From: Desulfobacteraceae bacterium
Lineage (GTDB): Bacteria > Desulfobacterota > Desulfobacteria > Desulfobacterales > Desulfobacteraceae
Direction of reading: 5' to 3'
Length of the DNA: 28,921 nucleotides
Assembly (NCBI GenBank): GCA_003354055.1
Contig: PIVQ01000022.1
Coordinates: 1 to 28,921 of the forward strand
Of the stretch, positions 246-20,822 are shown in pieces (position 1 is the stretch's first letter; each line of letters opens with the position of its first letter). Under the pieces are notes generated by a model. The model ran no database searches, had not been told where the DNA came from, and was given only the letters and a program-made list of their open reading frames with translations. A program made the position numbers and the translations under genes.

Positions 246-261
246 ACAGGTATTAGGTTTT

Positions 262-638: not shown

Positions 639-676
639 CTCGCCTGGATGGCCTGCTATATCGAAAAAATGCAGGG

Positions 677-714
677 AGCACTAGACGTGTTTTTTGCTCT
701 TAACGTCTTGTGCT
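677..714. repeat. 12-bp imperfect inverted repeat
   Basis: AGCACTAGACGT (677-688) and ACGTCTTGTGCT (703-714) are inverted copies matching at 11 of 12 positions, with a 14-base T-rich loop. The repeat ends 24 bases before the -35 element of the promoter at 738-766, so it could be an operator for a tra regulator or an oriT arm. Confidence 0.5.
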
Positions 715-737
715 GCAAGGTATCTTGTATTTTTTTC

Positions 738-766
738 TTGACATGGAGGAACTCAGGGCATATGAT
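738..766 (+). promoter_or_regulatory. Near-consensus sigma70 promoter for the tra operon
   Basis: A perfect -35 hexamer TTGACA (738-743) is followed after exactly 17 bases by TATGAT (761-766), one mismatch from the -10 consensus. Transcription should begin near 773, leaving a leader of about 215 bases before the ATG at 990. It is the strongest promoter I can see in the window, and no comparable + strand promoter or terminator is visible inside the operon. It probably drives the 1742-residue gene and all tra genes behind it. The inverted repeat at 677-714 immediately upstream is a candidate control site. Confidence 0.75.
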
Positions 767-848
767 GGATTGAAAGGCTCAAGGGTTTTTTCAGATTCAC
801 ACTGTGGACGAGTAAAAAATCTATGCCAAATGAATTAAGTTGCGCCCC

Positions 849-884
849 CGCCACCCTCATTTTGTTTTCCGACAAAAGGTGGCG
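849..884 (+). promoter_or_regulatory. Leader stem-loop, two-part stem
   Basis: In the untranslated leader, CGCCACC (849-855) pairs with GGTGGCG (878-884). After a 4-base bulge, TTTTGT (860-865) pairs with ACAAAA (872-877), closing a 6-base loop. This gives 13 pairs in all. There is no T-run after it, so it is more likely an RNA stability or regulatory element, or a protein-binding palindrome, than a terminator. Confidence 0.5.
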
Positions 885-965
885 AAAGCAAACCAAATAT
901 TGCTACTATTCTAGCATATTTTTTCTTGTGTATCTAGGTTTCTAGAACTGGTGTGCGCAACTTGA

Positions 966-992
966 TTCTCCAACATTGAGGAGAAAAAAATG
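966..992 (+). promoter_or_regulatory. Ribosome binding site inside a hairpin
   Basis: The strong ribosome binding site GAGGAG (978-983) lies six bases before the ATG at 990. TTCTCC (966-971) is exactly complementary to GGAGAA (980-985), which covers most of that site, with an 8-base loop between them. If the hairpin forms, it would hide the ribosome binding site of the first gene of the operon. The complementarity is visible; regulation is inferred. Confidence 0.45.
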
Positions 993-3900
993 TTGTACAC
1001 TACCAAAAAAAAACTGAAACGATTCGGTCGAAATTTCGACATGGGGCACGTTCGCTCGCCATTTGCAAAAGGAGCGGTGAGTGCACGTGAAAAAGAAGAG
1101 TTTGAGCTGCTGAGACAAGCTGTTGAGGCTTGCTACACAGGGATTGAATTTTCTTGGAAATCTATTTTTGCCTTGGATGTCAATACGGGCAAGCCAAATG
1201 AAAATGGGGGCAGGCTTCCGCCATTAATTCGGCGTGACCATCCACCCGCAACTTATGGGCAGCTAAGCCAAATGCATGCATCTATTCTTCGATGGTCTGA
1301 GGAGCGTGCAAATCGATGGTGGGGGAAAGGCCATGCAAATGGATCAATTAGCCTTCTTCTGCGTTTTTTGGTGCAAGAAGTTGATCACTTGTCGAGCCTG
1401 CCAGCGAAAGAAGATGCATTGAAGCGCGTTGAAGCACTTCATACTTTCCTTGCGCGACTGCTCAACGCTAACGGTTCTGATATTTTTGTGACCGAATACA
1501 GCGATGGAGAGGACAGCATCTATGAGCTTTTGCAAAATCTGCAAAAGCGTACGCCAGTTTTGGAAAAAGTGATCAAGGCTGAGATAGCGAAAGAAGCTAT
1601 CCGAGACAAAATAGAGAGATTGAAGGCAGCGCGCCGACCTCTGCGAGTGCAGTTTTCAACCTATATTTTTCATAGCTTGGCCAATCATGAGTTTCTTCAA
1701 GCCAATGAGATTTCTAGCGATACTTTCGTTCCGTGCGATTCGCTGTATGAAAAGTTATTCAAATCTCGCCGCAATGTGTTGTTTCACCAAGTCCTGTATC
1801 AGGATGAGAACAATCGAGTAGCAGCGGGTCGCTCCTACGAGGTTGCCGAGACGCCAGATGGAAGGCTGCTAAATCAGGATGGGAGCGTGAACGCGGAATG
1901 GCTGATGCTGCTGAGCCAAGTAGAAGTTAGCGAGCCAGAGCCAGAACAAAAAGAAGGTGTCGAGCAAGGAAAGCCCAAGAAAAATGTTTTGCTGGGAAAC
2001 AAACCTGGTTTTCCTGACGATATTTTTAAGGGAGACAAGGAATCTTTGAAAGAGATTGTTGAACTCTTCATCCGCCTCAACGGCCTGCTCGAAATTTTCG
2101 ATGAATATAATCAAAAAATCGACACTCTTTCAGATGCTGCGGGCTACGGTGGAGACGCAACTGTTTTTGGTCGTTTACCAGAGTTTCTAAAGCGGACGCT
2201 TGAGGGTTCTAAGGTTCTGAATCTGAAGATACGGCAGACTATACAGGAGCTTGAGGAGGTAATCAAGGGAAATGCAGTGCTCAAAGCTTTGGACGATGAT
2301 CGTAATCACAATTTCAAAAAGCACCATGACACTGCCAAAGAGGCTTTCAGAAAATTCAAGCAGCACCAGATCACCTATGAGAATGATCTAGATGATCTGC
2401 TGCGTCTTTTCAACGACTCAAATCGATGGTTTGACGAGCGCAAGGGCAGAATCTTGCGCAAGCTTTGTGATACGGTTCAAAATGAGAGGCAAAGCACCGA
2501 ATATGTTAATGGCGCGCTTGGGCTGCAAGGTGATGAGCGAATTGAGTATGTCGATCATAATGAGCCACAAAATCTGTCTGAGGATCTAGAATTATTTCAG
2601 CAGGAAGAAAAAAAGAGGGGTGTAGTACTTTCTGAAGAAGAAGAAAAATATCCAAATGGTGTTGATGCTGATGTGCGGAGCGTGTCGAGCATTGAATCTG
2701 AAAATTTTCGGGGGCAGCTAGAGGAGCCTGCCCCTGGGGAGGCTCAATTTGAAATAGTTGATGTGATGCCTGCGAGTGACTGGAGCAAAGAGAAGCGTAT
2801 TGATATCAAAGGAAAAGTTGCAAGTTTCGATCAGATGCTAGTTGATTTTTTTGGCGAGGCTCAGGATACAAGTGCTATTTTGAAAGATGTGCCAAGTGGC
2901 AGTAGTTGGTTTCGTGGCAGACAGGCTCGTTTTCTCTATTTGAACCGATTGGCAGGCAACCTTGGTGTCTGGCAGGGGCTCATACAGGAACTCAAAAAAT
3001 TCCGAGAGGGTCTTGAGAGCTCTGGGCTGTATAGCTCGCGCCAATTGTGGGCAATCGTTGTCATATCAAATCAAATCAAAGAAGAAATTAGGCATATTGA
3101 TGCTTGCAATCGGTCGTTGCATTTTTGGAATGGCCTGAGCAAAAGAAAGATGAATCTTTGGCGGAAGCGTTTTACTGCGTTAGAAAATGAATCTGCAGAA
3201 ATTGAAAAGAAGGTTGAAAGTCGCTGTAGCTCCATTCTATGGAAAAAGGCGGATTCGGCCTTGAAGGCAGGCAATTTCGAGCAATTTTTTGAGACTGTCG
3301 ACTATCTAGACATGCAGCAGGATGAATTGGCTGGATTTACTGCCTCTTTCTTTGGAGGAAGAAAGTTGTCCGAAAAAGCATGTAACACCATGCTAAAGCA
3401 AGCAAAAGCAAGCTTCTATTGTATTGCGTCTACGCGGTTTGCAATCGTTTGTGCGGATGGAGAAGACAATCTTGCGATGCCTTCAATGAGAAAAATGATG
3501 CGCCAATATTCAAGCGTATTGGAAGCTTTTGCGAAGGGAACCCCACGCCTAGCAAGACGTCTTGCTAATTTCTATTTTGAGTATCGGCGTGGAATGTATT
3601 TTAAGAAGGCAGTTCATTTTTTGGATATAGCTATTGTGCTCGGGGACAAAGAAGCACTGCATCTACTCTATGCGCGCTTAGACGTTAATGGCATAGGGAG
3701 GCCTGAACGCCGCGCACTTCTTGGTGTTCTCAACAACCGCAAGACATGCCGTACAAAGGATATTTTTGAGCTTGCTGAGATGGCGAAAGCCGATGGTAAC
3801 AAGGAGAAAGAAATTGAGTACTTCCAAAAAGTTCTTGCATCAGACGATAAGACTTTTTTTAGTCGCGCCCAATGGGAGCTTGCCAATATTTATCTAGAAA

Positions 3901-6218
3901 AAGGCGATGAATCAAAGGTTGAGGAGGTTTTGCAGAATTTCAATTTCAGCCCCCCTGGATACGACAAACTCAATGATTGGTTGAAGGATGAAGATGCTGA
4001 ACACGATCTTGAAGAGAAAGATATAGAACTTCTTGAAGTTGTTGCAAAAACAGATGTTGGTGCTGCAAGAAGGTTTACGCGTTTGTATTCAGCTTCCACA
4101 CCTGGGGGGAAAAACACAGAAAAAAGCATGTTCTATCTGAAGAAAGCCATTGAACTCGGGGACGAGGAGTCTTTACAGGAAGCGTACGGGATTTTAGATA
4201 GGCGTCCTCAAAGGGCTGAGGATTTTTTTGAGTTGCTCAACTTTCTTTTTGAACAAGGCAAATGCAGAGCAACCGACATGTTTCGGCTCGCAGCATTGCA
4301 CAAAGAGAAAGGAGCTTTTGCAAAAGCTGAAAATCTCCTAAATCTCCTAACTTGGAGATATGGAAGCCGATACAGCGATCATCATGCAGATCAGGCGTAT
4401 CTAGAGCTTGCACGCGTCTATCTGTGCCAAAGAGATAACTGCCACGAGTCTAAGAGTGATCAAGATGATGAGGCAAAAAGTGACCAAGATGATGAGGAAG
4501 TTGATCGATATAGGGAGAAAGCTGATCAATGCTTGTCGGAAATTCGAGACTTGCCTCTGAAAGCCCTCGAAGATCTGAAGCGGGCTAGTACTACAAATCA
4601 TGCAGAAAGGGCTTTATTTGAGATGCTTGCCGAGCATCATGGCGATGCTGCATACGCGCTAAGCCTTTCTGAAAAAGATAGCCAAAAGCGCAAATATTTT
4701 AGAGAGAAAGCATTTCTCCTTGGGAGCAAAGAAGCATTGTTTGCAGTCACAAAGGATTTTGGTTGCAATGGCTATATTTTTGAGGCGCGGGAGCTGGTGA
4801 AGTTATGTATGGATGAGAACAGCGGATTGAGCTTTGAAGATTTTAGGCAAAAGACAGAGTTTCAGAAAAAAATTATTTTTGCGAAATACTATTTTCGGAA
4901 TGACGAAGAGGATAAAGCTTTTGCGCACCTTGAAAAAATTCATAACTGGAAAAAAACAGATTACTCGTGGATTATCTGTGCTGACGAGCTCGCTTTCAGG
5001 GAGTCTGATATTGTTCCCGACAGGGAAGATTTTTTGGTGTTACATTATTTTATCGATAACTCCTGCTTCAGAACGGGAAAATATAGAATTAGAGTGCTCA
5101 ATCGAATTGCGACATACCCATTGGAAGCAAGGTGGGCAAGACGAAAAGCAGTTGAGCTAGGTTGTATTCCACATATTAATAAAGTTTTGGGGCATCTACT
5201 ACAAGATATGAGTGCCCTTGTTTCTGCTGATGAAAGACAGGAAGTTGCTCTTTGGTTTTTCGACTATATTTTTCCAGATAGCCAAAATATGCTGCCAGCA
5301 GTGCTATCGAGATATGAGACGCTCTATAGGCTAGCAATGTTTCATGAGAAGGACGGGAGGTACGATAAAGTTGGTCGCTTACTTTACCAAATTAAAGGAA
5401 AGAAGATTAATGAAGATTTCTTGAAAATTTTGCGAGATGAATGTTCTGAGAAAACGGAGTGGATTCTAAGGGTTCTTTCCCATAAAAGTGAGAGTGTCAG
5501 CAGAATGCTTTTTGAAGAATATGCCCTTGGCAAAAAACTGAAATTTAGCATAAAAAAAGCCAGAAAATATTTTGAACGTTCTGAGGGGGTGGAGTGCTCG
5601 AATCTCTATTTTAGTGTTGTATTAGTCCGTCTGTATGTTTCAAAAAAAAGGTTCAAAGCAATACAAATTGTTTGGACTCCCGAACTAGATCAATGGTTCA
5701 TCCGCTATCCGCGGCCAATCGACAAGGATTTTTTCCTGAATAAAGTGCAGTTTGCATTGCAAAGCAGCGACTATAAGGGGTTGGCTTCTTTGAGCAATAT
5801 GCTTAATAACTGGATGAAACGTATCAGAAAAAAAACTACGTGGCACAAATCAGTCCGAGAGGCTGTGGATAGCGCACTCATTGATCTGGTGATGTCGAAA
5901 ATCGATTTTGAAACGGACGAGCTAAGCATTGATGAAAAATTGAAGTTGTTTAATGGCTACAAGGATCGTTTTTTCAAAGGAAAATACGCCCCAATGTCTC
6001 CTTGCGGGAGATATTACGTCAACCTTAGCGACACGCTGTCTAAAGAGGATGCGGAAAGTATTCTAGGCATCTCCAAGAGTGAGGAGATCAAAGATGCCAA
6101 GCATCCTGCTAGTCCAAAGCCGTCTGCTGTATTTGTCGGGGAAAAAGCTGAGTTTCTTCCAGTAACAGCGGATATTGAAAAAATTATTGAGCAGGAAGAG
6201 TCTGTGAAAAAAATCTAA
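990..6218 (+). CDS. Giant Sel1/TPR-like solenoid protein of unknown function
   Basis: A 1742-residue protein heads the tra operon; I do not recognise its family. There is no signal peptide or membrane segment: the N terminus is basic (KKKLKRFGR). Residues 1-310 and 340-530 look helical and are separated by a Glu/Pro/Lys-rich linker near 313-330; a second acidic linker covers roughly 540-610. From about residue 850 to 1600 the chain shows Sel1/TPR-like helical repeats, with signatures such as FLDIAIVLGDKEAL, YLKKAIELGDEESL and FREKAFLLGSKEAL. Such solenoids usually bind proteins. An 8-residue acidic repeat lies near 1155-1170. The ATG at 990 has a strong GAGGAG site. Its stop overlaps the next start (TAATG), which couples it to the tra genes. 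It could be a cytoplasmic scaffold or regulator of transfer, or a secreted effector. The frame is certain; the role is open. Confidence 0.85.
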   Translation: MLYTTKKKLKRFGRNFDMGHVRSPFAKGAVSAREKEEFELLRQAVEACYTGIEFSWKSIFALDVNTGKPNENGGRLPPLIRRDHPPATYGQLSQMHASILRWSEERANRWWGKGHANGSISLLLRFLVQEVDHLSSLPAKEDALKRVEALHTFLARLLNANGSDIFVTEYSDGEDSIYELLQNLQKRTPVLEKVIKAEIAKEAIRDKIERLKAARRPLRVQFSTYIFHSLANHEFLQANEISSDTFVPCDSLYEKLFKSRRNVLFHQVLYQDENNRVAAGRSYEVAETPDGRLLNQDGSVNAEWLMLLSQVEVSEPEPEQKEGVEQGKPKKNVLLGNKPGFPDDIFKGDKESLKEIVELFIRLNGLLEIFDEYNQKIDTLSDAAGYGGDATVFGRLPEFLKRTLEGSKVLNLKIRQTIQELEEVIKGNAVLKALDDDRNHNFKKHHDTAKEAFRKFKQHQITYENDLDDLLRLFNDSNRWFDERKGRILRKLCDTVQNERQSTEYVNGALGLQGDERIEYVDHNEPQNLSEDLELFQQEEKKRGVVLSEEEEKYPNGVDADVRSVSSIESENFRGQLEEPAPGEAQFEIVDVMPASDWSKEKRIDIKGKVASFDQMLVDFFGEAQDTSAILKDVPSGSSWFRGRQARFLYLNRLAGNLGVWQGLIQELKKFREGLESSGLYSSRQLWAIVVISNQIKEEIRHIDACNRSLHFWNGLSKRKMNLWRKRFTALENESAEIEKKVESRCSSILWKKADSALKAGNFEQFFETVDYLDMQQDELAGFTASFFGGRKLSEKACNTMLKQAKASFYCIASTRFAIVCADGEDNLAMPSMRKMMRQYSSVLEAFAKGTPRLARRLANFYFEYRRGMYFKKAVHFLDIAIVLGDKEALHLLYARLDVNGIGRPERRALLGVLNNRKTCRTKDIFELAEMAKADGNKEKEIEYFQKVLASDDKTFFSRAQWELANIYLEKGDESKVEEVLQNFNFSPPGYDKLNDWLKDEDAEHDLEEKDIELLEVVAKTDVGAARRFTRLYSASTPGGKNTEKSMFYLKKAIELGDEESLQEAYGILDRRPQRAEDFFELLNFLFEQGKCRATDMFRLAALHKEKGAFAKAENLLNLLTWRYGSRYSDHHADQAYLELARVYLCQRDNCHESKSDQDDEAKSDQDDEEVDRYREKADQCLSEIRDLPLKALEDLKRASTTNHAERALFEMLAEHHGDAAYALSLSEKDSQKRKYFREKAFLLGSKEALFAVTKDFGCNGYIFEARELVKLCMDENSGLSFEDFRQKTEFQKKIIFAKYYFRNDEEDKAFAHLEKIHNWKKTDYSWIICADELAFRESDIVPDREDFLVLHYFIDNSCFRTGKYRIRVLNRIATYPLEARWARRKAVELGCIPHINKVLGHLLQDMSALVSADERQEVALWFFDYIFPDSQNMLPAVLSRYETLYRLAMFHEKDGRYDKVGRLLYQIKGKKINEDFLKILRDECSEKTEWILRVLSHKSESVSRMLFEEYALGKKLKFSIKKARKYFERSEGVECSNLYFSVVLVRLYVSKKRFKAIQIVWTPELDQWFIRYPRPIDKDFFLNKVQFALQSSDYKGLASLSNMLNNWMKRIRKKTTWHKSVREAVDSALIDLVMSKIDFETDELSIDEKLKLFNGYKDRFFKGKYAPMSPCGRYYVNLSDTLSKEDAESILGISKSEEIKDAKHPASPKPSAVFVGEKAEFLPVTADIEKIIEQEESVKKI
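4452..4499 (+). repeat. Two tandem 24-bp units encoding KSDQDDE(A/E)
   Basis: Units 4452-4475 and 4476-4499 are nearly identical and encode KSDQDDEA and KSDQDDEE at residues 1155-1170 of the solenoid protein. The copy number is in frame and could vary between strains by slippage. The acidic stretch probably forms an exposed loop between helical repeats. Confidence 0.8.
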
Positions 6219-6406
6219 TGTTAGAAAAATTGAAAATTATAGGTGTTTTTATGTTGGTGCTTTCGATGGCTGCTTGCCAAAGCCAGGAGCTTGAGGCTGA
6301 GCGGTTGTTCAGCCTTGAGCAACCGAAATGGGAGTCATCAAAAGTTGGAAAAGGCTATCCGCCACGGTGGATTGTCAAAAAAATTAATGTTTGTAAAAAA
6401 ATTTAG
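6218..6406 (+). CDS. Small lipoprotein, possible entry exclusion or accessory protein
   Basis: The product has 62 residues. A positive N terminus and a hydrophobic stretch (IIGVFMLVLSMAA) lead to a lipobox LSMAAC with Cys at position 20, so it should be exported, lipid-modified and reduced to a mature chain of about 43 residues. The mature part is charged, has one more Cys near the end, and has no family signature that I recognise. The ATG overlaps the stop of the solenoid gene by one base, so translation is probably coupled. TraV, further down, already fills the VirB7-like lipoprotein role. Small lipoproteins in conjugation operons often act in entry exclusion (TrbK, Eex), which is a reasonable but unproven guess here. 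Confidence 0.65.
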   Translation: MLEKLKIIGVFMLVLSMAACQSQELEAERLFSLEQPKWESSKVGKGYPPRWIVKKINVCKKI

Positions 6407-6416
6407 GAGATTAGAA

Positions 6417-6704
6417 ATGAAAATTTTAAAGAAAATGTATGCTCGGGTCTTTTGTTCTGGCGTGCTCTTGATGACTAATATTGCTTTTGCTGGAGACAAG
6501 GCTGCGGCTGGCAAAGACCTGTTTGCAGGGATTTTCAATGATATTTATACGACCCTAAAAGGGTCGTTCTCAACAGCTATCCTTGTCTTTGGCTTCATTA
6601 GTGCCATCGTGGGGTTTGCTTGCAGGAAAGGAGTGCCCGCTATTTGCACGTTTGTCGGCCTAGTCATTTTTTGGAATCTTGGCATTGCATACATAGGTAT
6701 CTAG
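6417..6704 (+). CDS. traA: F-type pilin precursor TraA
   Basis: The major pilus subunit, 95 residues from the ATG at 6417, chosen because AGGAG lies at 6405-6409; the frame is open further upstream but has no such site. A signal peptide of about 25 residues ends in AFA, leaving a mature chain of about 70 residues, the same length as mature F pilin. The mature part has a short polar N-terminal segment (starting GDKAAAGKDLF) and two hydrophobic helices joined by a small basic loop, the F-pilin layout. Two Cys residues (mature positions about 44 and 52) flank the loop. It lies directly before traL, as in F. No traQ or traX, the F pilin chaperone and acetylase genes, is seen nearby. Sequence similarity to F pilin is weak; the call rests on size, topology and position. 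Confidence 0.85.
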   Translation: MKILKKMYARVFCSGVLLMTNIAFAGDKAAAGKDLFAGIFNDIYTTLKGSFSTAILVFGFISAIVGFACRKGVPAICTFVGLVIFWNLGIAYIGI

Positions 6705-6989
6705 ATGAATTCAGTTCGTATTCAGCAGCATTTGAAAAAAACGCTCATTCCTTTGGATGGGCTGGTTGTTTCATTGCTCACTTTTTTCATTGTTTGGCTT
6801 CTTCTTGGAAGAAGCGACAGCATTCTTTTCGGGATGGTTGCTGGTGCTTTGGCAGCCATTGGCTACAGCCGTTTGAAAAGTGGTAGCGATGGTTTCGCCT
6901 TGCTTCACGCAGTGTATTGGAATAGCCCGCACTTTGTTTGTCGGTTGCGGGCTGCCCCAGAAAGTTGTGAACGAATTTTGGAGAATTAA
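6705..6989 (+). CDS. traL: Type IV conjugative transfer protein TraL
   Basis: A 94-residue inner-membrane protein of the pilus assembly complex, the F counterpart of VirB3. It has the family layout: a basic N terminus, the LDGL segment, two hydrophobic stretches (around 20-35 and 42-54), then basic residues, a YW pair followed by P, and a C-terminal arm with LRAAPESCER, close to the LR..P.SC.R pattern of F TraL (91 residues). The ATG follows the traA stop with no gap, so translation is probably coupled. TraL is thought to work with the ATPase TraC at the inner membrane. Confidence 0.9.
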   Translation: MNSVRIQQHLKKTLIPLDGLVVSLLTFFIVWLLLGRSDSILFGMVAGALAAIGYSRLKSGSDGFALLHAVYWNSPHFVCRLRAAPESCERILEN

Positions 6990-6990
6990 T

Positions 6991-7551
6991 ATGGAAACAA
7001 AATGGTTTCAAGAATCTTTGAAACAAGTTGAAGCGCAGCGAAATGGCTTCTTGATTTTATCTTTAGGCCTGCTTTTGCTCTGCTTTGTACTCTCTAGCAT
7101 GCTGGCCACAGCTTGGAAAACCAAGCGTGTTTTTCTTGTGCCTCCGACACTAAGCCAGAAAGCCTGGGTTAGTGCTTCACAGTTCGATGCAACCTATATT
7201 CAAGACATGGCCGAATATTTCGCCATGATTAGGCTAAATGTTCAGCCTAAGAACACCAAGGCATATCGAGAATTGCTGTTGCGGTGGGTCGATGCAAAAT
7301 CCTATGAGTCTTTTTCCCATGCTCTTGATACCGAAATCCGCGATATCTTAACTAGAGGCATTACTTCGGTTTTTTCTCTGAAAGGACGTGCAAAAGTTGA
7401 TACATCGCATTTGAAAGCAATTGTTAGGGGCACTATCCAAAAAACCATTGCAGGCCAGCATCTGGATGCGAAAAAATCTAGCTGGCAACTGACTTTTGCT
7501 AATCAGGGCGGGAAGCTTCTGCTCAAAAAATTCAAGGAGATTCAACAATGA
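6991..7551 (+). CDS. traE: Conjugative transfer protein TraE (VirB5/VirB8-like core)
   Basis: A 186-residue inner-membrane protein of the transfer channel, about the length of F TraE (188). The start at 6991 follows TTGGAGAA and lies one base after the traL stop. One membrane helix near residues 17-39 anchors a periplasmic domain. Family marks include FLVPPTLSQKAWV, followed by YIQDMAEYFAMIRLNVQP, which matches the TraE pattern PPTL...WV...Y...M..FF...LNV.P. TraE is needed for pilus assembly and is structurally related to VirB8. The stop overlaps the traV start by four bases (ATGA). Confidence 0.93.
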   Translation: METKWFQESLKQVEAQRNGFLILSLGLLLLCFVLSSMLATAWKTKRVFLVPPTLSQKAWVSASQFDATYIQDMAEYFAMIRLNVQPKNTKAYRELLLRWVDAKSYESFSHALDTEIRDILTRGITSVFSLKGRAKVDTSHLKAIVRGTIQKTIAGQHLDAKKSSWQLTFANQGGKLLLKKFKEIQQ

Positions 7552-7901
7552 AAAGGCTCATCCTAGTCCTCATGTCTCTCGTTCTTTCCGCTTGCTCCAC
7601 AATGTCTTCGACATTTGAGTGCCAAACAGGGCATTGCCAGGACGTACAAACAGTTAACCGCATGGTCAATCGTGGAGACTTTAACAGGGGCGAGGATTCT
7701 GGCAAGTTTTTGGGATGGGATGAACATGGCCAGGGGGCGCATTATGGCAATCTTCGTGTGCCAGAACGTGTGCTGCGCATATGGATTGCATCCTATTCAG
7801 ATGAACAAAACAACTGGCATATGGCTCATACGCTCTACACAGTAGTAGAACATGGGGACTGGTCTCCAAATATCAAAAAGGAAAATGCTCATGCAGATTA
7901 A
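7548..7901 (+). CDS. traV: Outer-membrane lipoprotein TraV (VirB7-like)
   Basis: A 117-residue lipoprotein with lipobox VLSAC (Cys 16), followed by STMSSTFECQ, the TraV pattern in which further Cys residues (24 and 29 here) come soon after the lipidated one. The C-terminal half has RVPERVLRIWIASYSDEQNNWH and a final TVVEHGDW, matching the TraV signature R.PE.V.RIW.APY.D..GNWH. F TraV has 171 residues, so this one is shorter in the middle. TraV anchors TraK to the outer membrane in the core complex. In F it lies after traB; here it precedes traK, and its end overlaps the traK start by 11 bases. Confidence 0.92.
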   Translation: MKRLILVLMSLVLSACSTMSSTFECQTGHCQDVQTVNRMVNRGDFNRGEDSGKFLGWDEHGQGAHYGNLRVPERVLRIWIASYSDEQNNWHMAHTLYTVVEHGDWSPNIKKENAHAD

Positions 7902-8613
7902 AAAAATTTTCATGCTGCAGCTTATCATGCTGCTTCCTCTTCTTTGTATTTACTGCATTGCGCTAGCATCAGGCTCAACAACGGCAATATTCGACAAAAA
8001 CCAAGCTTCAGTTGTTGTGCCCAAAAAAGGTCTTGGGCATGTCCACATCAGAGATACTCGCATACAGAGCGTTCGAGGAAAAAGCAACTGTCTTAGAAGC
8101 CAGTTCGATAGATCGGCTGGCGATTGGTTCTTTCAGATACTGCCAGCTTGTGCAGCTCAACCATTTTCAGTCTTTTTGAAAACTGAAAATGGGCAGCATT
8201 TAGAGCTAAGACTAATTCCTACAGAAGGTGCACCGAGCAATATAGTTCTAGTTCAGAATGGCAATCGCTTGAAGGCTGCACATTGGGAAAAAAGCGGTCC
8301 ATTTGAAGAGCGAATCATTAGTTTAGTGCGTGCGATGTGGCACAACAAAGCACCTGAAGGATTTCGATTGATCATGCCAGAAGGCATGCAGAAAAAGCCA
8401 GTGGGCACTTTTGGTTATCTCTATGAAAAATTTCGGATGGAAGGAGAGAAATTGGTTGGCACCATATATTTGCTTAAAAATCGAAAAAATCACCCTATCC
8501 AAATCAAGGAATATTTTTTTAGAGGGCGCAGAGTCCGTGCTGTTGCACTTGCAGATACTAAAATTCCAGCGCATGGGTCAACAACGGTACTGATCATCGA
8601 AGGGAGGCACTGA
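7891..8613 (+). CDS. traK: Outer-membrane core protein TraK (VirB9/secretin-like)
   Basis: A 240-residue periplasmic or outer-membrane protein, close to F TraK (242). I place the start at the ATG at 7891, nine bases after AAAAAGG; the in-frame ATG at 7885 is only three bases from it and less likely. A hydrophobic export signal covers residues 5-28. The body is beta-rich with few motifs: a central FSVFLKTENG segment, the LRLIPTEGAPSNIVL stretch, and a C terminus with basic EYFFRGRRVRAVAL, typical of the TraK family. TraK forms the outer ring of the core with TraV and TraB. Family assignment rests on moderate similarity plus its place between traV and traC. Confidence 0.9.
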   Translation: MQIKKIFMLQLIMLLPLLCIYCIALASGSTTAIFDKNQASVVVPKKGLGHVHIRDTRIQSVRGKSNCLRSQFDRSAGDWFFQILPACAAQPFSVFLKTENGQHLELRLIPTEGAPSNIVLVQNGNRLKAAHWEKSGPFEERIISLVRAMWHNKAPEGFRLIMPEGMQKKPVGTFGYLYEKFRMEGEKLVGTIYLLKNRKNHPIQIKEYFFRGRRVRAVALADTKIPAHGSTTVLIIEGRH

Positions 8614-8614
8614 A

Positions 8615-11101
8615 ATGCAAAAAATACTCGGACAAGTTGCTAAATTTTGTGGGGAAGAAGAGTTTGAAAAATTTCCAGGCCTGCAATCTGGGCTCAAAGA
8701 AACAATCCCATCTGAAAGTCTTGTACGACATAGGCCTTTAATTCAAGAGTTGCATTTTGTGTCCTGGAATGAAGAAACGGGGATTTTTCAAAACAAAAAT
8801 TCGAGTGGTTTTGCTCTAGAAATCCATCCGCCGTCTTTTGTAGACTCTCAGTCTTTCGACAGTATCTGCACTTGGTTTTTGGCAGCACTGCCAGTGGATG
8901 TAGATTTTCAGTGGCTTTTGCACGCTTCTCCAGACATTAGCCCGTTTCTCAATACGTTTAGGGAGTTTCGTGGCAGAAGCAAAAATCCGACACATACACT
9001 TCTTGCGAAGAAGCGTACCGAGTTCCTCGCAAGCAAAACATGGGATTCGCTAGATCCTCTCTATCCATTGCTGCTGCGCAATTTTCGATTGTTTGCGGTT
9101 GTGTCGGTTGAGACCAGACTTTCAAAAAAAGTAGAGCTTCAATTTTTAGCAGAACGCCTCATGTCGGTGCTAAGAAGTGCACAGTTTCAGCCAAAATTGG
9201 TGTGTGCTACGGCACTTCTCAATCTTGTCCAAGAATGCATTCATCCTGGAAGCGAGACAAGGAATCAAGAGTGGCATCCTCGTGTGCCGTTGTTTGAACA
9301 AATGGCAGATGTTGCAAGCCGTCTAACAGTTCATCCGCACGAACTCTTGTCGGAGCGGATAGACACGGGCGAGATTCGTTCAATCCGTACATTTTCACCA
9401 AGAATGCTGCCCAGCGAATTCTCTCAAAGCTATGTGTCCGAACTCATCGGACAGATGTTTAGTCGAAATTTTCAATTACCATGTCCTGTTTGGGTCAGCT
9501 TAGCCATGCGAACAGCCAATCTAACTTCAAGTCGGCTGCATGCCAAGCGAAAAGTTTTATCGCTTAGGAGGCTTGCGGAGCAAGGATTGTCTCGATTTTT
9601 CCCTGCGATTCCAAGGCATCTTGAGGACTATGAGCATTTTGAGGCAGCACTGAATGCGGGCGACAAAGAATGCAAAGTGTTGATGCAGGTCGTTTTGGTT
9701 GCACCACAAGATTGTGCTGAAGATGCAGAAGCACGCATCAAATCCCTGTATAGCTCATTTGGTTTCAAACTTATTAAAAACAAGTATGTACAGTGCCCAA
9801 GTTGGCTTTCTATACTGCCATTTCGCAGCAGCGAGGGCGCGTTTCATGATGCCCGAATATTTGGCCAAACGCACTCCGCAACACTCAAACAAGCCATACA
9901 TATTGCCCCACTATCTGGCGAATGGAAAGGAAATGGTGCAGGAGGATTAATTTTTGCAGGTCGAAAAGGGCAGGTAGCCACCTGGTGGCCATTCAATAGC
10001 CCTAGCAACTACAATATTTGTGTGGCTGGCACCTCGGGTTCTGGAAAATCTGTTTTGATTCAGGAGCTTGCCAGTTCTATTTTGGCTGCTGGGGGTCGTG
10101 TTTGGATCATAGATTCGGGGCGATCTTTTGAAAAACTGTGCAGCCTCATGTCTGGTACTTTCTTATCTTTTGAGGCTGGCAAAAAAATCAGTCTCAACCC
10201 TTTTTCTAATATTGAGAAGCTCGACTTTGAGCAGCAGGAATTGCTAAAAAGCCTAATTTGCGCGATGGCACGGCCAAACTGCTCAGTTTCGAGGGAGGAA
10301 GAAAACCGCATTGAGCAAGCAGTGTCTGCAGTATGGCAAGACAAGGGTGCTGACGCCTCCTTAGAAGACGTTGTAGTTTGGCTTTCGAGCCATGAAAACA
10401 AAGTTTGTCGGGATATTGGTTTGCTGCTATATCCATACGGGCCAGAGGGGAGGTATCGCGACTATTTTTCAGGTAAGAGCAACTGGAACGTGGACGATGC
10501 TTTTTTTCTCTTAGAGCTTCAAGAGCTACAAAATAGCCCCGAATTACAAAAGATGGTACTGCTAATGGTGATTTTTCGTATCTATAGTGCAATGTGTCTT
10601 GGCGACAAAAGCCAAGTGAAATGTTGCATTGTAGATGAGGCTCATGGCCTTCTAGACCAAGGAGCCGCCACCTTCATTGAGAAAGGATATCGGACAGCCC
10701 GAAAATACAATACATCATTTGTATCCATTTCGCAAAGCGTGTCAGATTTTAAAGCAAGCGCGACAGGAGAGGTGATTTGGGCAAATTCAGCACACAAGAT
10801 CTGTTTCAAACAAACAGACTCTATTGTGGCAAAAATGCGCAAGGACGGAGATATTCAGGATTCGGATTTCATTCAAAAACTGCACAACACCTTGGAAAGC
10901 AGCCCCCTCTTTTCAGAGTTCATCATCCATAGCCCTGGTGGGGCGTCTATTCATAGGCTAATTCTAGACTCCTATTCACGACTGCTGTACTCCTCCAGCG
11001 CAGAGGATTTTGCTGCGGTTAAGGAGTTGATGGACAGAGGCTATAGCTGTGGGGATGCAATCGAATTAATTGTCGAAGGAGGCGAAAAAAATGTTAGATA
11101 A
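8615..11101 (+). CDS. traC: Pilus assembly ATPase TraC (VirB4 family)
   Basis: A cytoplasmic ATPase of 828 residues (F TraC 875) that powers pilus assembly. The N-terminal half is the VirB4-type domain; the C-terminal half is RecA-like with Walker A GTSGSGKS (472-479) and Walker B ending in VDEAHG with D674 and E675. The start at 8615 has GGGAGG just upstream and lies one base after the traK stop. After Walker A come the expected WIIDSGRSFEKLC and SLNPFSNI segments. Its last 11 bases overlap the start of the small traB-like ORF (ATG at 11091). In F, traC follows traV; here traK comes between. Confidence 0.97.
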   Translation: MQKILGQVAKFCGEEEFEKFPGLQSGLKETIPSESLVRHRPLIQELHFVSWNEETGIFQNKNSSGFALEIHPPSFVDSQSFDSICTWFLAALPVDVDFQWLLHASPDISPFLNTFREFRGRSKNPTHTLLAKKRTEFLASKTWDSLDPLYPLLLRNFRLFAVVSVETRLSKKVELQFLAERLMSVLRSAQFQPKLVCATALLNLVQECIHPGSETRNQEWHPRVPLFEQMADVASRLTVHPHELLSERIDTGEIRSIRTFSPRMLPSEFSQSYVSELIGQMFSRNFQLPCPVWVSLAMRTANLTSSRLHAKRKVLSLRRLAEQGLSRFFPAIPRHLEDYEHFEAALNAGDKECKVLMQVVLVAPQDCAEDAEARIKSLYSSFGFKLIKNKYVQCPSWLSILPFRSSEGAFHDARIFGQTHSATLKQAIHIAPLSGEWKGNGAGGLIFAGRKGQVATWWPFNSPSNYNICVAGTSGSGKSVLIQELASSILAAGGRVWIIDSGRSFEKLCSLMSGTFLSFEAGKKISLNPFSNIEKLDFEQQELLKSLICAMARPNCSVSREEENRIEQAVSAVWQDKGADASLEDVVVWLSSHENKVCRDIGLLLYPYGPEGRYRDYFSGKSNWNVDDAFFLLELQELQNSPELQKMVLLMVIFRIYSAMCLGDKSQVKCCIVDEAHGLLDQGAATFIEKGYRTARKYNTSFVSISQSVSDFKASATGEVIWANSAHKICFKQTDSIVAKMRKDGDIQDSDFIQKLHNTLESSPLFSEFIIHSPGGASIHRLILDSYSRLLYSSSAEDFAAVKELMDRGYSCGDAIELIVEGGEKNVR

Positions 11102-11391
11102 AAAACAAGAAAAAACGAAGCAGCCCGTATTCTCCAAAAAAAAGCAGTTCATTACGCCAGCTGTAGTTGCTCTGCTGGTTTTCTTGGCGTTAGTGGTGCT
11201 GCCAAGCCAAAAACCAATGCCAAAGAAGGAGGCTTCGCAAAAAAATGTTAGATGAAAAACAAGAAAAAAAGAAGCAGCCCGCATTCTCAAAAAAAATCAA
11301 AAAAAAACAGTTTGTTGCACTGGTTGTAGTCGTTGCGATGGTTTGCTTAGCGATAGGCGTACTGCCAAGCCACAAACCAACGCCAAAGAAG
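11075..11391 (+). repeat. Partial tandem duplication of the traB 5' end
   Basis: Copy 1 spans about 11075-11228 and copy 2 about 11225-11391. The two ATG codons are 154 bases apart, so the copies lie in different frames, and the second copy has three extra codons after the Lys-rich head. Ribosome binding sites GAAGGAGGC occur at 11075-11083 and 11225-11233. Both starts sit in the same overlap, ATGTTAGATAA and ATGTTAGATGA, each closing the upstream frame. Confidence 0.8.
11091..11255 (+). CDS. 54-residue duplicate of the TraB N-terminal membrane anchor
   Basis: This short ORF encodes a Lys-rich head (MLDKKQEKTKQPVFSKKK), one membrane helix (about 22-40) and a basic tail. It is a partial copy of the start of the following traB: head, helix and the LPSxKPxPKK end all match. 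At DNA level the first 44 bases differ from traB at 3 positions, and bases 11199-11228 differ from 11362-11391 at 2 of 30, while the helix core has diverged more. It has its own GAAGGAGGC site, overlaps the traC stop by 11 bases and ends inside the traB start region (ATGTTAGATGA). It may be translated as a small inner-membrane peptide or just couple traB translation. In F, trbI occupies the slot after traC, but this is clearly TraB-derived. Confidence 0.7.
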   Translation: MLDKKQEKTKQPVFSKKKQFITPAVVALLVFLALVVLPSQKPMPKKEASQKNVR

Positions 11392-12426
11392 ATGCCACAA
11401 AAAATAGAAGTTGTATCGATAGACCCCGCAGTGAAAAAAGATGAAGAGAATGTAGCCGTGGTGAAAAAAGTTGAAAAGAGTTTTGGTGATTTGCAATACG
11501 AAAACAAACAATTGCATGTCAAAGAGGATGCCAAGCTCGAATCGCTCCAAAAAACAGTTTTGGCACTCAAAGAGAGTCTCAAGAAACAGGCTGTACAATT
11601 GGCAGAAATTTCTGCACAGAAATTGAGAAAAATACCCCAAAACAAAAAGACTTCAAAACGAGACGAATCTGAGCAAATGAAAGTCTGGAAAGCAAATCTT
11701 TTGGCCAAAAAGGAGAAAAAGAAAAATATACGTACCACAAAAAACTATGTGCTTGGCGGAACTATCGCACGTGCTGTTGTTCTAGGTGGGGCAGATGTTG
11801 GCGCGGGAGTTCGAAGCCAAGCGAATCCAAATACTATGCTGCTACGCATATTGAATGATGGGGATATGCCGGGTCCTGCAAAAAGCCACTTAAAAAATTG
11901 CGTTGTTATCGCTTCTGTAAGTGGGGATATCTCAAGTGAGCGTGGTTTTGTCCGAGCTGAAAGTATTAATTGCAGTTGGCCAAATGGGCGCATTTTTGAA
12001 AAAAACATCAAGGCGGTTGTATTCGGCATCGATGGGAAAGAGGGTATACGCGGAAGGGCTGTTTTTCGCGAGGGAAGTATTCTCAAGCATGCGTTTTTGG
12101 CGGGAGCGATCGGAAGCATGTCTAAAGCTGCAGCCCAGACGATGACAACGCCGATTTCTCTGGCGGACGGATTTAGGAAAACTGTATTGCCAAAGGATGT
12201 TCTGAGTTTTGGAGCAGCACAAGGCACAGGGGACGCTATGAGCCAACTGGCTCAATATCACATCAAGAGGGCTGAAATGTATCACCCGATCATTCAGCTC
12301 AAGTCTGGTCAGCTCGTAGCAATCATATTTAAGCGTGGCTTTTCATTTGAGGAGGTGGATGATGTAGGGCGCAATGCTCTAGCCAACAGTTTCAAAATAG
12401 GTGGGGAGGCGACAAATGATGTTTAA
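11245..12426 (+). CDS. traB: Core channel protein TraB (VirB10 family)
   Basis: A 393-residue inner-membrane protein spanning the periplasm (F TraB 475). A Lys-rich cytoplasmic head is followed by a membrane helix at about 23-40, a linker, a coiled coil around residues 90-120 (KLESLQKTVLALKESLKKQ), a basic stretch, and a C-terminal VirB10-like beta domain with NTMLLRILNDGDMPGPAKSH, then CVVIASVSGDISSERGFVRA and an AFLAGAIGSMSKAAAQ helix typical of TraB. It links inner and outer membranes in the core complex. The start overlaps the stop of the duplicated ORF by 11 bases. In F, traB lies between traK and traV; here it comes after traC. A-runs near 11288-11308 are possible slippage points, but the frame is intact. 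Confidence 0.95.
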   Translation: MLDEKQEKKKQPAFSKKIKKKQFVALVVVVAMVCLAIGVLPSHKPTPKKMPQKIEVVSIDPAVKKDEENVAVVKKVEKSFGDLQYENKQLHVKEDAKLESLQKTVLALKESLKKQAVQLAEISAQKLRKIPQNKKTSKRDESEQMKVWKANLLAKKEKKKNIRTTKNYVLGGTIARAVVLGGADVGAGVRSQANPNTMLLRILNDGDMPGPAKSHLKNCVVIASVSGDISSERGFVRAESINCSWPNGRIFEKNIKAVVFGIDGKEGIRGRAVFREGSILKHAFLAGAIGSMSKAAAQTMTTPISLADGFRKTVLPKDVLSFGAAQGTGDAMSQLAQYHIKRAEMYHPIIQLKSGQLVAIIFKRGFSFEEVDDVGRNALANSFKIGGEATNDV

Positions 12427-13036
12427 GCATCTCATTATGGGGCTGAGCCTGCTTTTTTCAAGTCATCTTTGGGCTGTCACTTTTAAAGATTTGGGGGAAA
12501 TTGGCACTGTTTTTGCAATAGCAGAAACAGATCCGCGCGATGCTCTGAAGAAAGCAAAAAGCCTATCGATTGAACACGTGAGCCCCTCATTTCGCAAAGA
12601 TGAACCATTTCCGCTAAAAAAATCGAGGATGCTAACAAGAGGCTCAACGGTATACTACTACGAGACAAAATTTGAGTCTAGAGGAGATTCCAATGGCAAG
12701 CTTCTCGCAAAGAGTGGGCAAACCATTAATATCCTCAAGTCTGGCTTGCCATTTGAGCGCGTGCTCGTTTTCTATGATGCACGGGATGCTGAGCAGCTCA
12801 AAAATCTAAAAGCCCGCCTCAAATCAAAAATGATTGAGCGCGCTAATCTGAGAGTCATCCTAACTGGGGGTTCTGTCCAAGAGGCTCAAAAGGACTGGAA
12901 TATTCCAGTCTTCGCAGACCAGCAAGGAAAAATAATTGAAAAGCTAGGCATTCATCATATGCCTGCAATTGTTGAGAGAGAAGCTGACCGCCTCAAAATC
13001 ACTGAGATTGGGGAGGATGCAAATGAGCCTCAATAG
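12416..13036 (+). CDS. traW: Pilus assembly protein TraW
   Basis: A periplasmic protein of 206 residues (F TraW 210) specific to F-type systems and needed for pilus formation with TraU and TrbC. A signal peptide ends near LWA, followed by VTFKDLGEIGTVFAIAETD, the TraW N-terminal signature. The C-terminal half carries RVLVFYDARD, VRVILTGG-like segments and WNIPVFADQQGKIIEKLGI, followed by MPAIVERE, the usual thioredoxin-like tail of the family. The start ATG at 12416 (or 12419) follows GGGGAGG and overlaps the traB stop by 11 bases. Confidence 0.93.
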   Translation: MMFKHLIMGLSLLFSSHLWAVTFKDLGEIGTVFAIAETDPRDALKKAKSLSIEHVSPSFRKDEPFPLKKSRMLTRGSTVYYYETKFESRGDSNGKLLAKSGQTINILKSGLPFERVLVFYDARDAEQLKNLKARLKSKMIERANLRVILTGGSVQEAQKDWNIPVFADQQGKIIEKLGIHHMPAIVEREADRLKITEIGEDANEPQ

Positions 13037-14048
13037 AAAACATTTGCAATTAGCAGTGCATATTTTGCTTGCCTTGGCTGTAGGTTTTGCTATTTGCAAC
13101 AGCTTGCCAGCCTCAGCCAGCAAGCTCTGCAAGGGTCGAATACTAAATCCAATTTCTGATGTAGATTGGGATGGACTATTTCCAATTACTATTGGGGGGT
13201 TGCTGAAATTTTCTGGTGAAAATCCTGACACTGAAAATCCTGGCTCGCCCGTCTGTATGTGTTCAAATGAAAATGGCCTTACGCCTGTGCGCATTGGCCT
13301 GTCTTTGGGCTATTGGGAGCCAATAGCTTTGATTGAAGTTGTTCGACATCCTGGATGTTTTCCAAGCTTGGGAGGCATTTCATTTCCTATTGGTTCGGGA
13401 CAAGGCGGGAGCTGGAGAAATACCTTTGGCCGAGAGGGGCAAGCGAATTCTTTCTATCATGTCCACTATTATCCGTTTCCAGCCCTGTCGCTGTTGAATG
13501 CGGGTCTAGACGTAGCATGTATGTCTAGCAGCTTGAACCTGAGTTGGTTCTCTGAATTCGACCCCAGTTGGCGCGATGATCAATTGGCCATGATTCTTAA
13601 TCCTGAGGCTGTTCTATTTGCTACTCCTGCAGCTCAAGCAGTTTGCGCAGCCGATGCGACTGCTGTATTGGTTAAAAAATTGCCTATCGACAAACTTTTT
13701 TGGTGCGCTGGAACCCAGGGTGGCATGTATCCGCTAGATGGATACACCAGAGGATTAGGGGGCATACGCTCAGCATTGCTTTTGGCTGAAAGAATGCTTT
13801 TCAAACTGCATCGAATGCATATGATGCAGGACTCCGTTGGCAGTGATGGTGTGGATTTGTGCCGTATGCATAGTTTGCCACTATTGCCCAAATCTCGCTA
13901 TCGCCTACAGATGGTGTATCCAAAAAAACGTAAGGCCGAGCCAATTGGCCGATATACGGATAGTGCCTATGCGGGTGTTTTGCGACCAGACGGTGGAGAG
14001 GATTTTGTATTTCTAGTCTGGAGGAAAAGAAATTGTTGCGCTTTTTGA
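13023..14048 (+). CDS. traU: Pilus assembly / DNA transfer protein TraU
   Basis: A 341-residue secreted protein (F TraU 330), Cys-rich, needed for DNA transfer and pilus assembly. A signal peptide is followed by CKGRILNPISDVDWDGLFPITIGG, the most conserved TraU segment. Other marks are CMCSNENGLTPVRIGLSLGYWEP, GYWEPIALIEVVRHPGCFPSLGG, YYPFPALSLLNAG and a C-terminal FWCAGTQGGMYPLDG. The ATG at 13023 has GGGGAGG just upstream and overlaps the traW end by 14 bases. The many Cys residues imply oxidative folding, plausibly helped by TraF. Confidence 0.97.
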   Translation: MSLNRKHLQLAVHILLALAVGFAICNSLPASASKLCKGRILNPISDVDWDGLFPITIGGLLKFSGENPDTENPGSPVCMCSNENGLTPVRIGLSLGYWEPIALIEVVRHPGCFPSLGGISFPIGSGQGGSWRNTFGREGQANSFYHVHYYPFPALSLLNAGLDVACMSSSLNLSWFSEFDPSWRDDQLAMILNPEAVLFATPAAQAVCAADATAVLVKKLPIDKLFWCAGTQGGMYPLDGYTRGLGGIRSALLLAERMLFKLHRMHMMQDSVGSDGVDLCRMHSLPLLPKSRYRLQMVYPKKRKAEPIGRYTDSAYAGVLRPDGGEDFVFLVWRKRNCCAF

Positions 14049-14419
14049 GAAAAAACTGCTTGGCGTTTATTTTGCTAGGTTTTGCTTGTGTTTCTAATGC
14101 TGCTAGCAGCCAACCACCAATTGTGTTTGTTTCGTTTTCTATGCCAGAGGCGAGCTTGCGCGCATTGAAAGTACAGTCTGAGGATGTTGGTGCGGTGCTC
14201 ATATTTAGAGGATTCCATAGAAATTCTTTGAAAAGGACAGTTGCTGAGATCCAGCGCATTTTTGAGCTGAAAGCATCAGACAAAACAACAATACAAATTA
14301 ATCCGCTACTTTTCTCAGAATACAACATTGAGCAGGTGCCCTGTGTAGTTCATGAAGCAAAGAAAATTTGTGGAAATGTCCCCCTGATAACTGCTTTAGA
14401 AAAAATCCAGGGAGGTTAG
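14033..14419 (+). CDS. trbC: Pilus assembly protein TrbC
   Basis: A periplasmic protein of 128 residues that works with TraW in F-pilus assembly; F TrbC has 212, so this is a short form. The start is TTG at 14033, placed by the strong GGAGGAAAA site just before it; it overlaps the traU end by 16 bases. A signal peptide (FILLGFACVSNA) precedes PPIVFVSFSMPEASLRAL, the defining TrbC motif, then GAVLIFRGFHRNSLKRT and INPLLFSEYNIEQVPCVV. The thioredoxin-like arrangement of VSFSMP and a later VP is seen, without a CxxC pair. It is followed by traN after two bases. Confidence 0.93.
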   Translation: MLRFLRKNCLAFILLGFACVSNAASSQPPIVFVSFSMPEASLRALKVQSEDVGAVLIFRGFHRNSLKRTVAEIQRIFELKASDKTTIQINPLLFSEYNIEQVPCVVHEAKKICGNVPLITALEKIQGG

Positions 14420-14421
14420 GC

Positions 14422-15357
14422 ATGAAAATTTTAGCACCACTGACCCTTGGGTTGGTTCTTTGTTTTTTTGTGTCTGCTTTTGCAGAAGGAGCAGATTTTT
14501 TGCAAGAGCTTGAAAAGCTAGGACAAATGCCGATGGATGAGGCGGGCTTGGATGCGCTTCAAATTGCTGGCGAAAAAGCACTCAATGAGTGTGAGAGGGA
14601 TGCTTGCGTAGCTGCAAAAAAGAAAGTGCTCAAAAGAGATGAAAAAACTGGCGAAGCACTGCCAATTGAGAGGCAAACTCAGATTTTTGACAAGGAGACC
14701 GTCCGTGCCTTGGAAAAGGCTCAGAAACAAGGAGAAAATGCAGATAGTTCAATACTGCAAAATATGCCAGATATCCCGCCTGCCAAAGAAGTTGAAAATA
14801 GGCCAGCGAATGAGGCGTTGACGCAGCTACTAGCTGCCAAAGGTGGTGCAAACACTGCTTTAGATGAGGAGACGGGCGAAACATTACTTTTTGTAGGACA
14901 ATCGGCAGAGTGCTCAGAAGGTGGCGCAAATTTCCGAAATTGTTGCAAGAAAAAAGGCTGGGGACTCGACCTCTCATTGGCACATTGCAACAAGCAAGAA
15001 AAAGAACTAGGAGAGGCGCGCAGTCAAGGCCGAGCAATCCAAGTTGGTCGGTTCTGCGCACATCATAGTTTTCTAGGTTGCACTAGCCATCACGAAAGTT
15101 GGTGTATTTTCCCGTCCAAGCTGGCACGTATCATCCAGGAGCAAGGACGCTTGAAACAGCTTGGCATTTCTTTTGGACATGGCCACCACCCCGATTGTAG
15201 TGGTATTCGCCCAGACGACTATAAAGGCATCAATTTTTCTCAGATCGATCTAACAGCAGCCTTTTCAGAAACAAGTGATATGTTTCCCCAATTGGATTCG
15301 ATGCAATCCAATTTTGTTACTGAAATTGGAAAAAAAGCTAGGGAGGAGGAGCGTTGA
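14422..15357 (+). CDS. traN: Mating-pair stabilisation adhesin TraN (short form)
   Basis: An outer-membrane protein that contacts the recipient surface. It has 311 residues against 602 for F TraN. A signal peptide ends in SAFA near residue 21. The first 160 residues are charged and helical. The Cys-rich C-terminal core is clear: CSEGGANFRNCCKKKGWG, then FPSKLARIIQEQGRLKQLG, then HPDCSGIRPDDYKGINFSQ, all typical of TraN. What is missing is the large variable tip domain that in F meets OmpA. The start has GGGAGG at 14410-14415. The stop overlaps the traF TTG start by four bases. TraN sits in its usual place between trbC and traF. Confidence 0.9.
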   Translation: MKILAPLTLGLVLCFFVSAFAEGADFLQELEKLGQMPMDEAGLDALQIAGEKALNECERDACVAAKKKVLKRDEKTGEALPIERQTQIFDKETVRALEKAQKQGENADSSILQNMPDIPPAKEVENRPANEALTQLLAAKGGANTALDEETGETLLFVGQSAECSEGGANFRNCCKKKGWGLDLSLAHCNKQEKELGEARSQGRAIQVGRFCAHHSFLGCTSHHESWCIFPSKLARIIQEQGRLKQLGISFGHGHHPDCSGIRPDDYKGINFSQIDLTAAFSETSDMFPQLDSMQSNFVTEIGKKAREEER

Positions 15358-20772: not shown

Positions 20773-20822
20773 CACCACAACAGCTTTAACCACTTTTTTC
20801 ACAAAAAAACAGGAGTTTGAAA

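What the first reader, a model, noticed from the sequence alone, without database searches (positions are those of the whole stretch)
990..6218. Uncharacterised 1742-residue Sel1/TPR-like protein heads the tra operon
The largest gene after traI takes up 5.2 kb at the promoter-proximal position and is coupled to the tra genes by a TAATG overlap, yet it matches no known F-type transfer component. It has no signal or membrane segment, two acidic linkers and a long C-terminal helical solenoid. A cell would pay a high cost to express it with every pilus gene, so it may be a transfer regulator or scaffold, a recipient-directed effector, or an anti-defence factor. It is the best candidate for an undescribed component.
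Basis: partly seen in the sequence, partly recalled or inferred. Interest (0 to 1): 0.75.

Follow-up and report, generated by a model that had tools for sequence, protein, structure and literature searches.

The report
Orphan giant protein heads tra operon
A bacterial DNA-transfer operon, probably from a Legionella-like relative, begins with a very large soluble repeat protein for which no relative was found, and the nearest related operon lacks it, so it looks like an add-on made together with the transfer machine rather than a standard part of it.

Summary
Window 990-6218 is an intact 1742-codon gene with tra-like codon usage. It overlaps the next gene as TAATG and heads an otherwise ordinary F-type/MOBF tra operon. 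No membrane segment. The C-terminal half models as helices; residues 830-979 look like a TPR/Sel1-type solenoid, and 843-979 is repeated at 1014-1158. No family cut-off is met. Searches found no relative beyond one generic TPR-like match and one chance match. The nearest related element held, G300, starts directly with a lipoprotein-like gene and traA. So it is not a conserved part of F-type machines. Best reading: a lineage-specific, soluble alpha-solenoid accessory protein co-expressed with the T4SS, more likely effector or adaptor cargo than pilus component; function untested. New here: the presumed 216-nt leader folds so that Shine-Dalgarno or AUG is occluded in each of two alternative folds, which could gate the head gene and, through TAATG, its neighbour. 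One other genome (G141) has two tra operons headed by a different pair of large uncharacterised proteins.

The parts
990..6218 (+). giant head gene, 1742 aa, soluble, no family (P0001)
738..766 (+). sigma-70-like promoter match TTGACA-17-TATGAT (pattern match only)
   Evidence: 11 of 12; 3 sites in 1100 bases, both strands, against 1.7 expected
774..989 (+). presumed 5' leader of the head gene (start site inferred from the promoter match)
   Evidence: fold z -4.1 (774-1020) and -5.5 (774-975), 0 of 200 shuffles as stable in each
949..1005 (+). hairpin of the short transcript that pairs the Shine-Dalgarno 980-985 with 966-971 and spans the start codon
   Evidence: -20.6 kcal/mol, z -5.0, 0 of 200 shuffles; but 108 of 4122 66-nt windows of the whole sequence fold as well, and the traE start region gives -20.3
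832..845 (+). arm 1 of a long-range inverted repeat formed in the full leader
   Evidence: 14 nt, 93%, 109 nt apart; 1 of 60 shuffles had such a pair
955..968 (+). arm 2 of that inverted repeat
3516..3926 (+). residues 843-979: first copy of an internal repeat, spacing about 170 aa, TPR/Sel1-like
4029..4463 (+). residues 1014-1158: second copy
   Evidence: score 113; largest of 100 whole shuffles 91 and of 100 block shuffles 89
6218..6406 (+). 62-aa lipoprotein-like gene overlapping the head gene by TAATG
   Evidence: a lipoprotein-like gene precedes traA in G300 too (by eye)
6417..6704 (+). traA-like pilin
   Evidence: TrbC/VirB2 pilin E 0.0036, under the cut-off
6705..6989 (+). traL
6880..7551 (+). 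traE
7548..7901 (+). traV
7852..8613 (+). traK
8615..11101 (+). traC
11245..12426 (+). traB
   Evidence: E 9e-44, under the NCBIfam cut-off
12401..13036 (+). traW
   Evidence: E 3e-28, under the cut-off
12969..14048 (+). traU
   Evidence: over the cut-off
14033..14419 (+). trbC
   Evidence: over the cut-off
14368..15357 (+). traN, short (329 aa)
   Evidence: over the Pfam cut-off
15354..16133 (+). traF
   Evidence: E 9e-30 (TraF-like), under the cut-off
16121..17437 (+). traH
   Evidence: E 1e-50, under the cut-off
17439..20243 (+). traG
   Evidence: E 5e-86, under the cut-off
20817..22880 (+). traD
22881..28835 (+). traI: MOBF relaxase, helicase, C-terminal DUF7146 and Toprim

Best explanation
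The gene is a lineage-specific accessory (cargo-like) gene that came to sit at the head of an otherwise standard F-type/MOBF transfer operon. Shown: a real, intact, soluble protein; no relative in the collections searched; an internal repeat in a helical C-terminal half of TPR/Sel1 type (fold credible for about 150 residues only); overlap with the next gene; a leader whose predicted folds cover the ribosome site; absence from the nearest related operon heads read. Inferred: the solenoid is a peptide- or protein-binding adaptor made only when the transfer machine is made. It most likely acts as an effector-type protein, either passed through the T4SS to the partner cell or a host, or acting in the donor on host-cell proteins, rather than as a piece of the pilus. 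The leader holds its translation low until a signal (antisense RNA, RNA-binding protein, temperature or another ligand) opens it. Through the TAATG overlap this also affects the adjacent lipoprotein gene.
Confidence: 0.42

Rival explanations
1. Donor-side transfer regulator or scaffold: a cytosolic adaptor that takes the place, in this lineage, of the F regulators or relaxosome helpers encoded ahead of traA, and ties tra expression to a signal through its gated leader.
For: Head position, TAATG overlap, structured leader. In F-like plasmids FinP antisense RNA pairs with stem-loops of traJ mRNA and hides its ribosome site (PMC7690428, passages). F traM/traJ/traY lie in this place (recalled).
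Against: No DNA-binding family found; no orthologue in the related operon heads read.
Confidence: 0.27
2. Anti-defence or recipient-takeover protein passed with the DNA or made early in the recipient.
For: An F-type T4SS passes plasmid proteins that calm the recipient (PMC8406263, abstract).
Against: No anti-defence or defence family (PADLOC best is DrmC E 0.025, chance level). Leading-region genes enter first and lie next to oriT (PMC7690428, passages); oriT was not located here, and in F the tra region enters last (recalled).
Confidence: 0.12
3. A separate question, not exclusive of the others: the leader inverted repeats are not an RNA switch but DNA sites (oriT or an operator), and the head gene is simply an accessory gene next to them.
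For: MOBF operons often have oriT near the operon head (recalled); inverted repeats at 832-845/955-968 and 949-1005.
Against: No clear sequence shared between window 168-989 and nine stretches of relatives (best match 14 nt, E 0.64), which also speaks against a conserved RNA.
Confidence: 0.35
4. Assembly chimera or decaying passenger without function.
For: Single contig, no relative.
Against: Open over 1742 codons, tra-like codon use throughout, same strand, overlap with the next gene.
Confidence: 0.05

Closest known systems
F-type (MPF_F) / MOBF conjugation operon, as on Aquicella lusitana plasmid 4 and Legionella plasmids
   Same: traA, L, E, V, K, C, B, W, U, trbC, N, F, H, G, D and I present; TraC 35-36% identical to Aquicella
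   Different: extra 5.2-kb head gene; order V-K-C-B instead of K-B-V-C; short TraN; Toprim-bearing TraI (relatives' TraI domains not scanned)
Sel1 / TPR alpha-solenoid proteins (for example LapB, LpnE, LceB)
   Same: helical hairpins, internal repeats; Foldseek lists consensus TPR, LapB, OGT and LpnE
   Different: below the Sel1 cut-off (14.8 of 30.7 bits) and no TPR Pfam model reported at E up to 1; repeat spacing about 170 aa; LceB seen only in a search listing
TPR cargo of RAGE elements (Rickettsiales) with F-type tra genes
   Same: TPR-type protein on an F-type element of a probably host-associated lineage
   Different: here it heads the tra operon; RAGE markers and sequence similarity to RAGE TPR proteins were not specifically tested
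FinOP-controlled traJ leader of F-like plasmids
   Same: structured leader near the ribosome site of an early transfer gene
   Different: no antisense RNA shown here; no match of the head gene to a TraJ model; no Rfam match over gathering scores
P0081+P0080 pair of unnamed gammaproteobacterium G141
   Same: large uncharacterised proteins without hydrophobic segments, ahead of two F-type tra operons
   Different: no sequence or profile similarity; two genes followed by small genes and traA, not a TAATG overlap with a lipoprotein gene

Membership tests
F-type conjugation operon | core MPF_F genes traL, E, V, K, C, B, W, U, N, F, H, G with trbC | tested here: met
   Over a curated cut-off: traL, E, V, K, C, N (Pfam), U and trbC (NCBIfam). 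traB, W, F, H and G match at E between 3e-28 (traW) and 5e-86 (traG), but under the NCBIfam cut-offs
F-type conjugation operon | MOBF relaxase and TraD coupling protein | tested here: met
   TrwC 183.9 bits, TrwB_AAD_bind 305.5 bits
known F-type transfer component (for P0001) | match to a Tra/Trb family model | tested here: not met
   none up to E 1 (Pfam) and 0.1 (NCBIfam)
Sel1 repeat family PF08238 | score over the curated cut-off | tested here: not met
   14.8 bits, cut-off 30.7
TPR/Sel1 alpha-solenoid fold | tandem helical hairpins with a superhelical stack | tested here: inconclusive
secreted T4SS effector | translocation into another cell | not testable with these tools
   needs an experiment
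FinOP-like leader control | antisense RNA complementary to the leader | not tested
   only a weak minus-strand promoter match at 936-908, 9 of 12
anti-phage defence protein | PADLOC family match | tested here: not met
   best DrmC E 0.025

The most novel reading that the evidence does not exclude
The operon head is a new kind of control unit: a giant solenoid protein whose translation is gated by a bistable leader RNA and which, through the TAATG overlap, links expression of the lipoprotein-traA segment to its own synthesis. Unrelated large proteins (here P0001, in G141 the P0081+P0080 pair) would then have been recruited independently to the same place, as transfer-linked effectors.
Probability: 0.12. 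Interest if true: 0.72.

Novelty: new variant of a known kind. Interest (0 to 1): 0.42.

Why it matters
If the protein is passed through or made with an F-type T4SS, it would show such operons carrying very large dedicated effectors, linking conjugation and host manipulation. If the leader gate is real, it gives a testable further example of RNA control of an early transfer gene outside the FinOP plasmids. If neither holds, it is an ordinary case of an orphan accessory gene in a tra operon.

Tried and rejected
Homology: the one viral contigs match (L001, 29 residues) lies in a 411-aa reading frame of a region that I read by eye as phage-like; taken as chance. The one genome match (G351, E 0.003, residues 875-981) is a protein that I read by eye as a PrsT-like TPR protein (not scanned), generic similarity. 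The weak hits Stonustoxin_helical and mCpol, DrmC and PrsT were taken as chance or generic. PDB by sequence: one hit at E 0.51.

Analogues: large ORFs within 2 kb upstream of traL/E. L023 is a Calx-beta protein and L038 a SNF2 helicase; L024 (1327 aa) was not scanned. The 524-aa ORF of L013/L110 and the 592-aa ORF of L111 gave no Pfam match at E up to 1e-4; I read them by eye as replication-type. The 531- and 507-aa ORFs of L007 and L030 were not examined. The G326 pair ahead of traE is TraI_2 and TraD. I first thought P0081+P0080 might be a split P0001; profile comparison gave probabilities of 0.2 and 0.1 percent, so that is dropped.

Limits: no whole genome is held for the window, so neither the host nor the rest of the element is known. 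Empty genome searches lack a positive control, as the tool notes. Protein searches need shared 5-residue words, and the genome searches used a loose first look. In one search the observed repeat score was the best of 60 split points while its shuffles were tried at 20; one search repeats the control at all 60 points (100 whole and 100 block shuffles, largest 91 and 89, observed 113). In some searches my label set contained a traA frame shifted by one base, so the traA label was never usable there; the heads were found by traL/traE. The shifted frame was also used and set right.

Full report
What is there. The 1742-codon gene at 990-6218 is intact and coding. It starts behind GAGGAG, ends in TAATG with a 62-codon lipoprotein-like gene, and is followed by traA, L, E, V, K, C, B, W, U, trbC, N, F, H, G, D and I on the same strand. 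traL, E, V, K, C, N, U and trbC pass a curated cut-off; traB, W, F, H and G match their families at E 3e-28 or better but under the NCBIfam cut-offs; traA is weak (E 0.0036). The operon is F-type with a MOBF relaxase. The TraC tree (33 rows; I chose 32 of the 134 loci then held) sets the window with Aquicella, L. fallonii, G300, Piscirickettsia and L. longbeachae, 6 rows at 99/99; the tool flagged 13 rows, the window among them, for unusual letter make-up. IcmQ was found in 28 of 369 gammaproteobacterial genomes, G300 and the two other held genomes of its order, G195 and G056, among them. The contig's own host is not known; a Legionellales-like gammaproteobacterium is inference from the tra genes.

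Relatives. None found. 7987 and 7992 scored candidates out of 5.8 billion proteins gave only the query; plasmids no match; genome contigs 33 pattern stretches, none confirmed; viral contigs 4 stretches, one confirmed by the tool and taken by me as chance. Six-frame searches: 1 of 369 gammaproteobacterial genomes (generic TPR), 0 of 190 genomes of the phylum of a Chlamydiae genome, 0 of 143 and 0 of 16 genomes of the orders of two IcmQ-bearing genomes, 0 of 3 of the order of G300. No positive control exists for these. Among 17442 reading frames of 60 or more residues in the 138 loci held, the best match has E 0.19.

Position in relatives. Census: 94 rows (locus and strand) with traL or traE, 87 with more than 2 kb upstream. 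A reading frame of 500 aa or more ending within 2 kb upstream of traL/E occurs in 13 rows; 5 of these are the P0080 gene of G141's two operons. For a gene as long as P0001 many loci hold only about 5.5 kb upstream, so it would have shown as a cut frame. No row has a P0001 relative. In G300, whose TraC is 36% identical and whose TraN is also short, a lipoprotein-like gene, traA and traL stand directly together. The simplest reading is gain of the giant gene in the window's lineage ahead of a pre-existing lipoprotein-traA-traL start; loss in the relatives is not excluded.

G141 carries P0081 (753 residues stop to stop) and P0080 (888) ahead of both of its tra operons (57% and 53% identical between the two). 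A third, remote pair at contig C49 has no tra gene labelled in the 19 kb fetched. No Pfam. They are not related to P0001 by sequence or profile. Two unrelated cases of large uncharacterised proteins at the operon head is a pattern worth watching, not yet a class.

The leader. If the promoter match at 738-766 is used, the leader is about 216 nt. Alone, 945-1010 folds at -20.6 kcal/mol with the Shine-Dalgarno paired (z -5.0, 0 of 200 shuffles). In the full leader the arms 832-845 and 955-968 pair instead, which leaves the Shine-Dalgarno in an 11-nt loop (unpaired 0.92-1.0) but puts the AUG in a stem (unpaired 0.05-0.08). Enforcing the Shine-Dalgarno stem costs 3.3 kcal/mol (-65.5 against -68.8) and shortens the long-range helix by three pairs only, so the two overlap in part; with arm 1 blocked the whole local hairpin comes back (-61.2). 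Against over-reading: 108 of 4122 windows of this sequence fold as well as the hairpin, the traE start gives -20.3, the arms arise in 1 of 60 shuffles, there is no Rfam match and no relative for covariation. The same repeats could be DNA sites such as oriT.

How it probably works. Shown: a soluble, partly solenoid, unique protein tied to a tra operon start. Inferred: it binds other proteins, is made with the T4SS, and is an accessory effector or adaptor. The precedents are TPR proteins described as putative effectors on RAGE elements with F-type tra genes (PMC10732058, passages incl. part of the abstract), a TPR gene listed as a virulence factor on a Piscirickettsia plasmid, not the one with the tra genes (PMC6963756, passages), and protein transfer by an F T4SS (PMC8406263, abstract; PMC11288057, search listing only). 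A regulator at the head, with a leader controlled as in traJ/FinP (PMC7690428, passages), is the main rival.

Print. Searches for Sel1 with conjugative and tra operon (2 papers, neither about such a gene by title), for F-type tra with TPR and Rickettsia (6 papers, two looked into by passages) and for a first gene ahead of traA in Legionella F-type plasmids (0 papers) did not show this protein or a giant gene ahead of traA. The library is open-licence PMC only.

Verdict. A confirmed, moderately interesting orphan: a new variant of an F-type operon, not evidence for a missing part of the F-type machine.

Noticed in passing
window 20244-20780 (-): Between traG and traD the minus-strand frame (178 aa, about two hydrophobic segments and a Ser-rich tail, by eye) fits tra codon usage better (r 0.71) than the plus-strand frame 20230-20820 (0.61). 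Minus-strand genes with hydrophobic segments (by eye) stand in the traG-to-traD interval in L. fallonii (L134 22644-23099, Ser-rich tail) and Piscirickettsia (L132 15339-15656). No sequence similarity at E up to 1 by phmmer. The place is that of F entry-exclusion genes (recalled).
   Followed up: partly
window 22881-28835: TraI carries DUF7146 and Toprim_3 domains at its C-terminus behind relaxase and helicase, a relaxase-primase-like fusion.
   Followed up: no
window 14368-15357: TraN is only 329 aa and its best NCBIfam match covers only the C-terminal part of the model (400-553 of 572); the G300 frame is 314 aa, the Aquicella frame 601 aa.
   Followed up: partly
window 7548-12426: Gene order traV-traK-traC-traB differs from traK-traB-traV-traC in Aquicella, L. 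fallonii and Piscirickettsia.
   Followed up: partly
window 560-604 and 261-286: A perfect 15-nt A/T inverted repeat (arms 560-574 and 590-604) and a hairpin TGTTACGGCCT/AGGTCGTAACA upstream; the 324-773 ORF around the first has no clear coding signal (r 0.60, two reverse frames also 0.60).
   Followed up: no
L108/L117 and L116 (G141): Two tra operons of one genome each headed by the uncharacterised pair P0081+P0080; a remote third pair at L119 8016-11850.
   Followed up: partly
L134 4635-4811: L. fallonii plasmid II has a gene annotated carbon storage regulator, followed by traT, shortly ahead of its tra operon, a possible RNA-level regulator of transfer.
   Followed up: no
L085: A 65.5-kb contig filed as viral carries traC with traL/E upstream, so it is probably a plasmid or ICE.
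   Followed up: no
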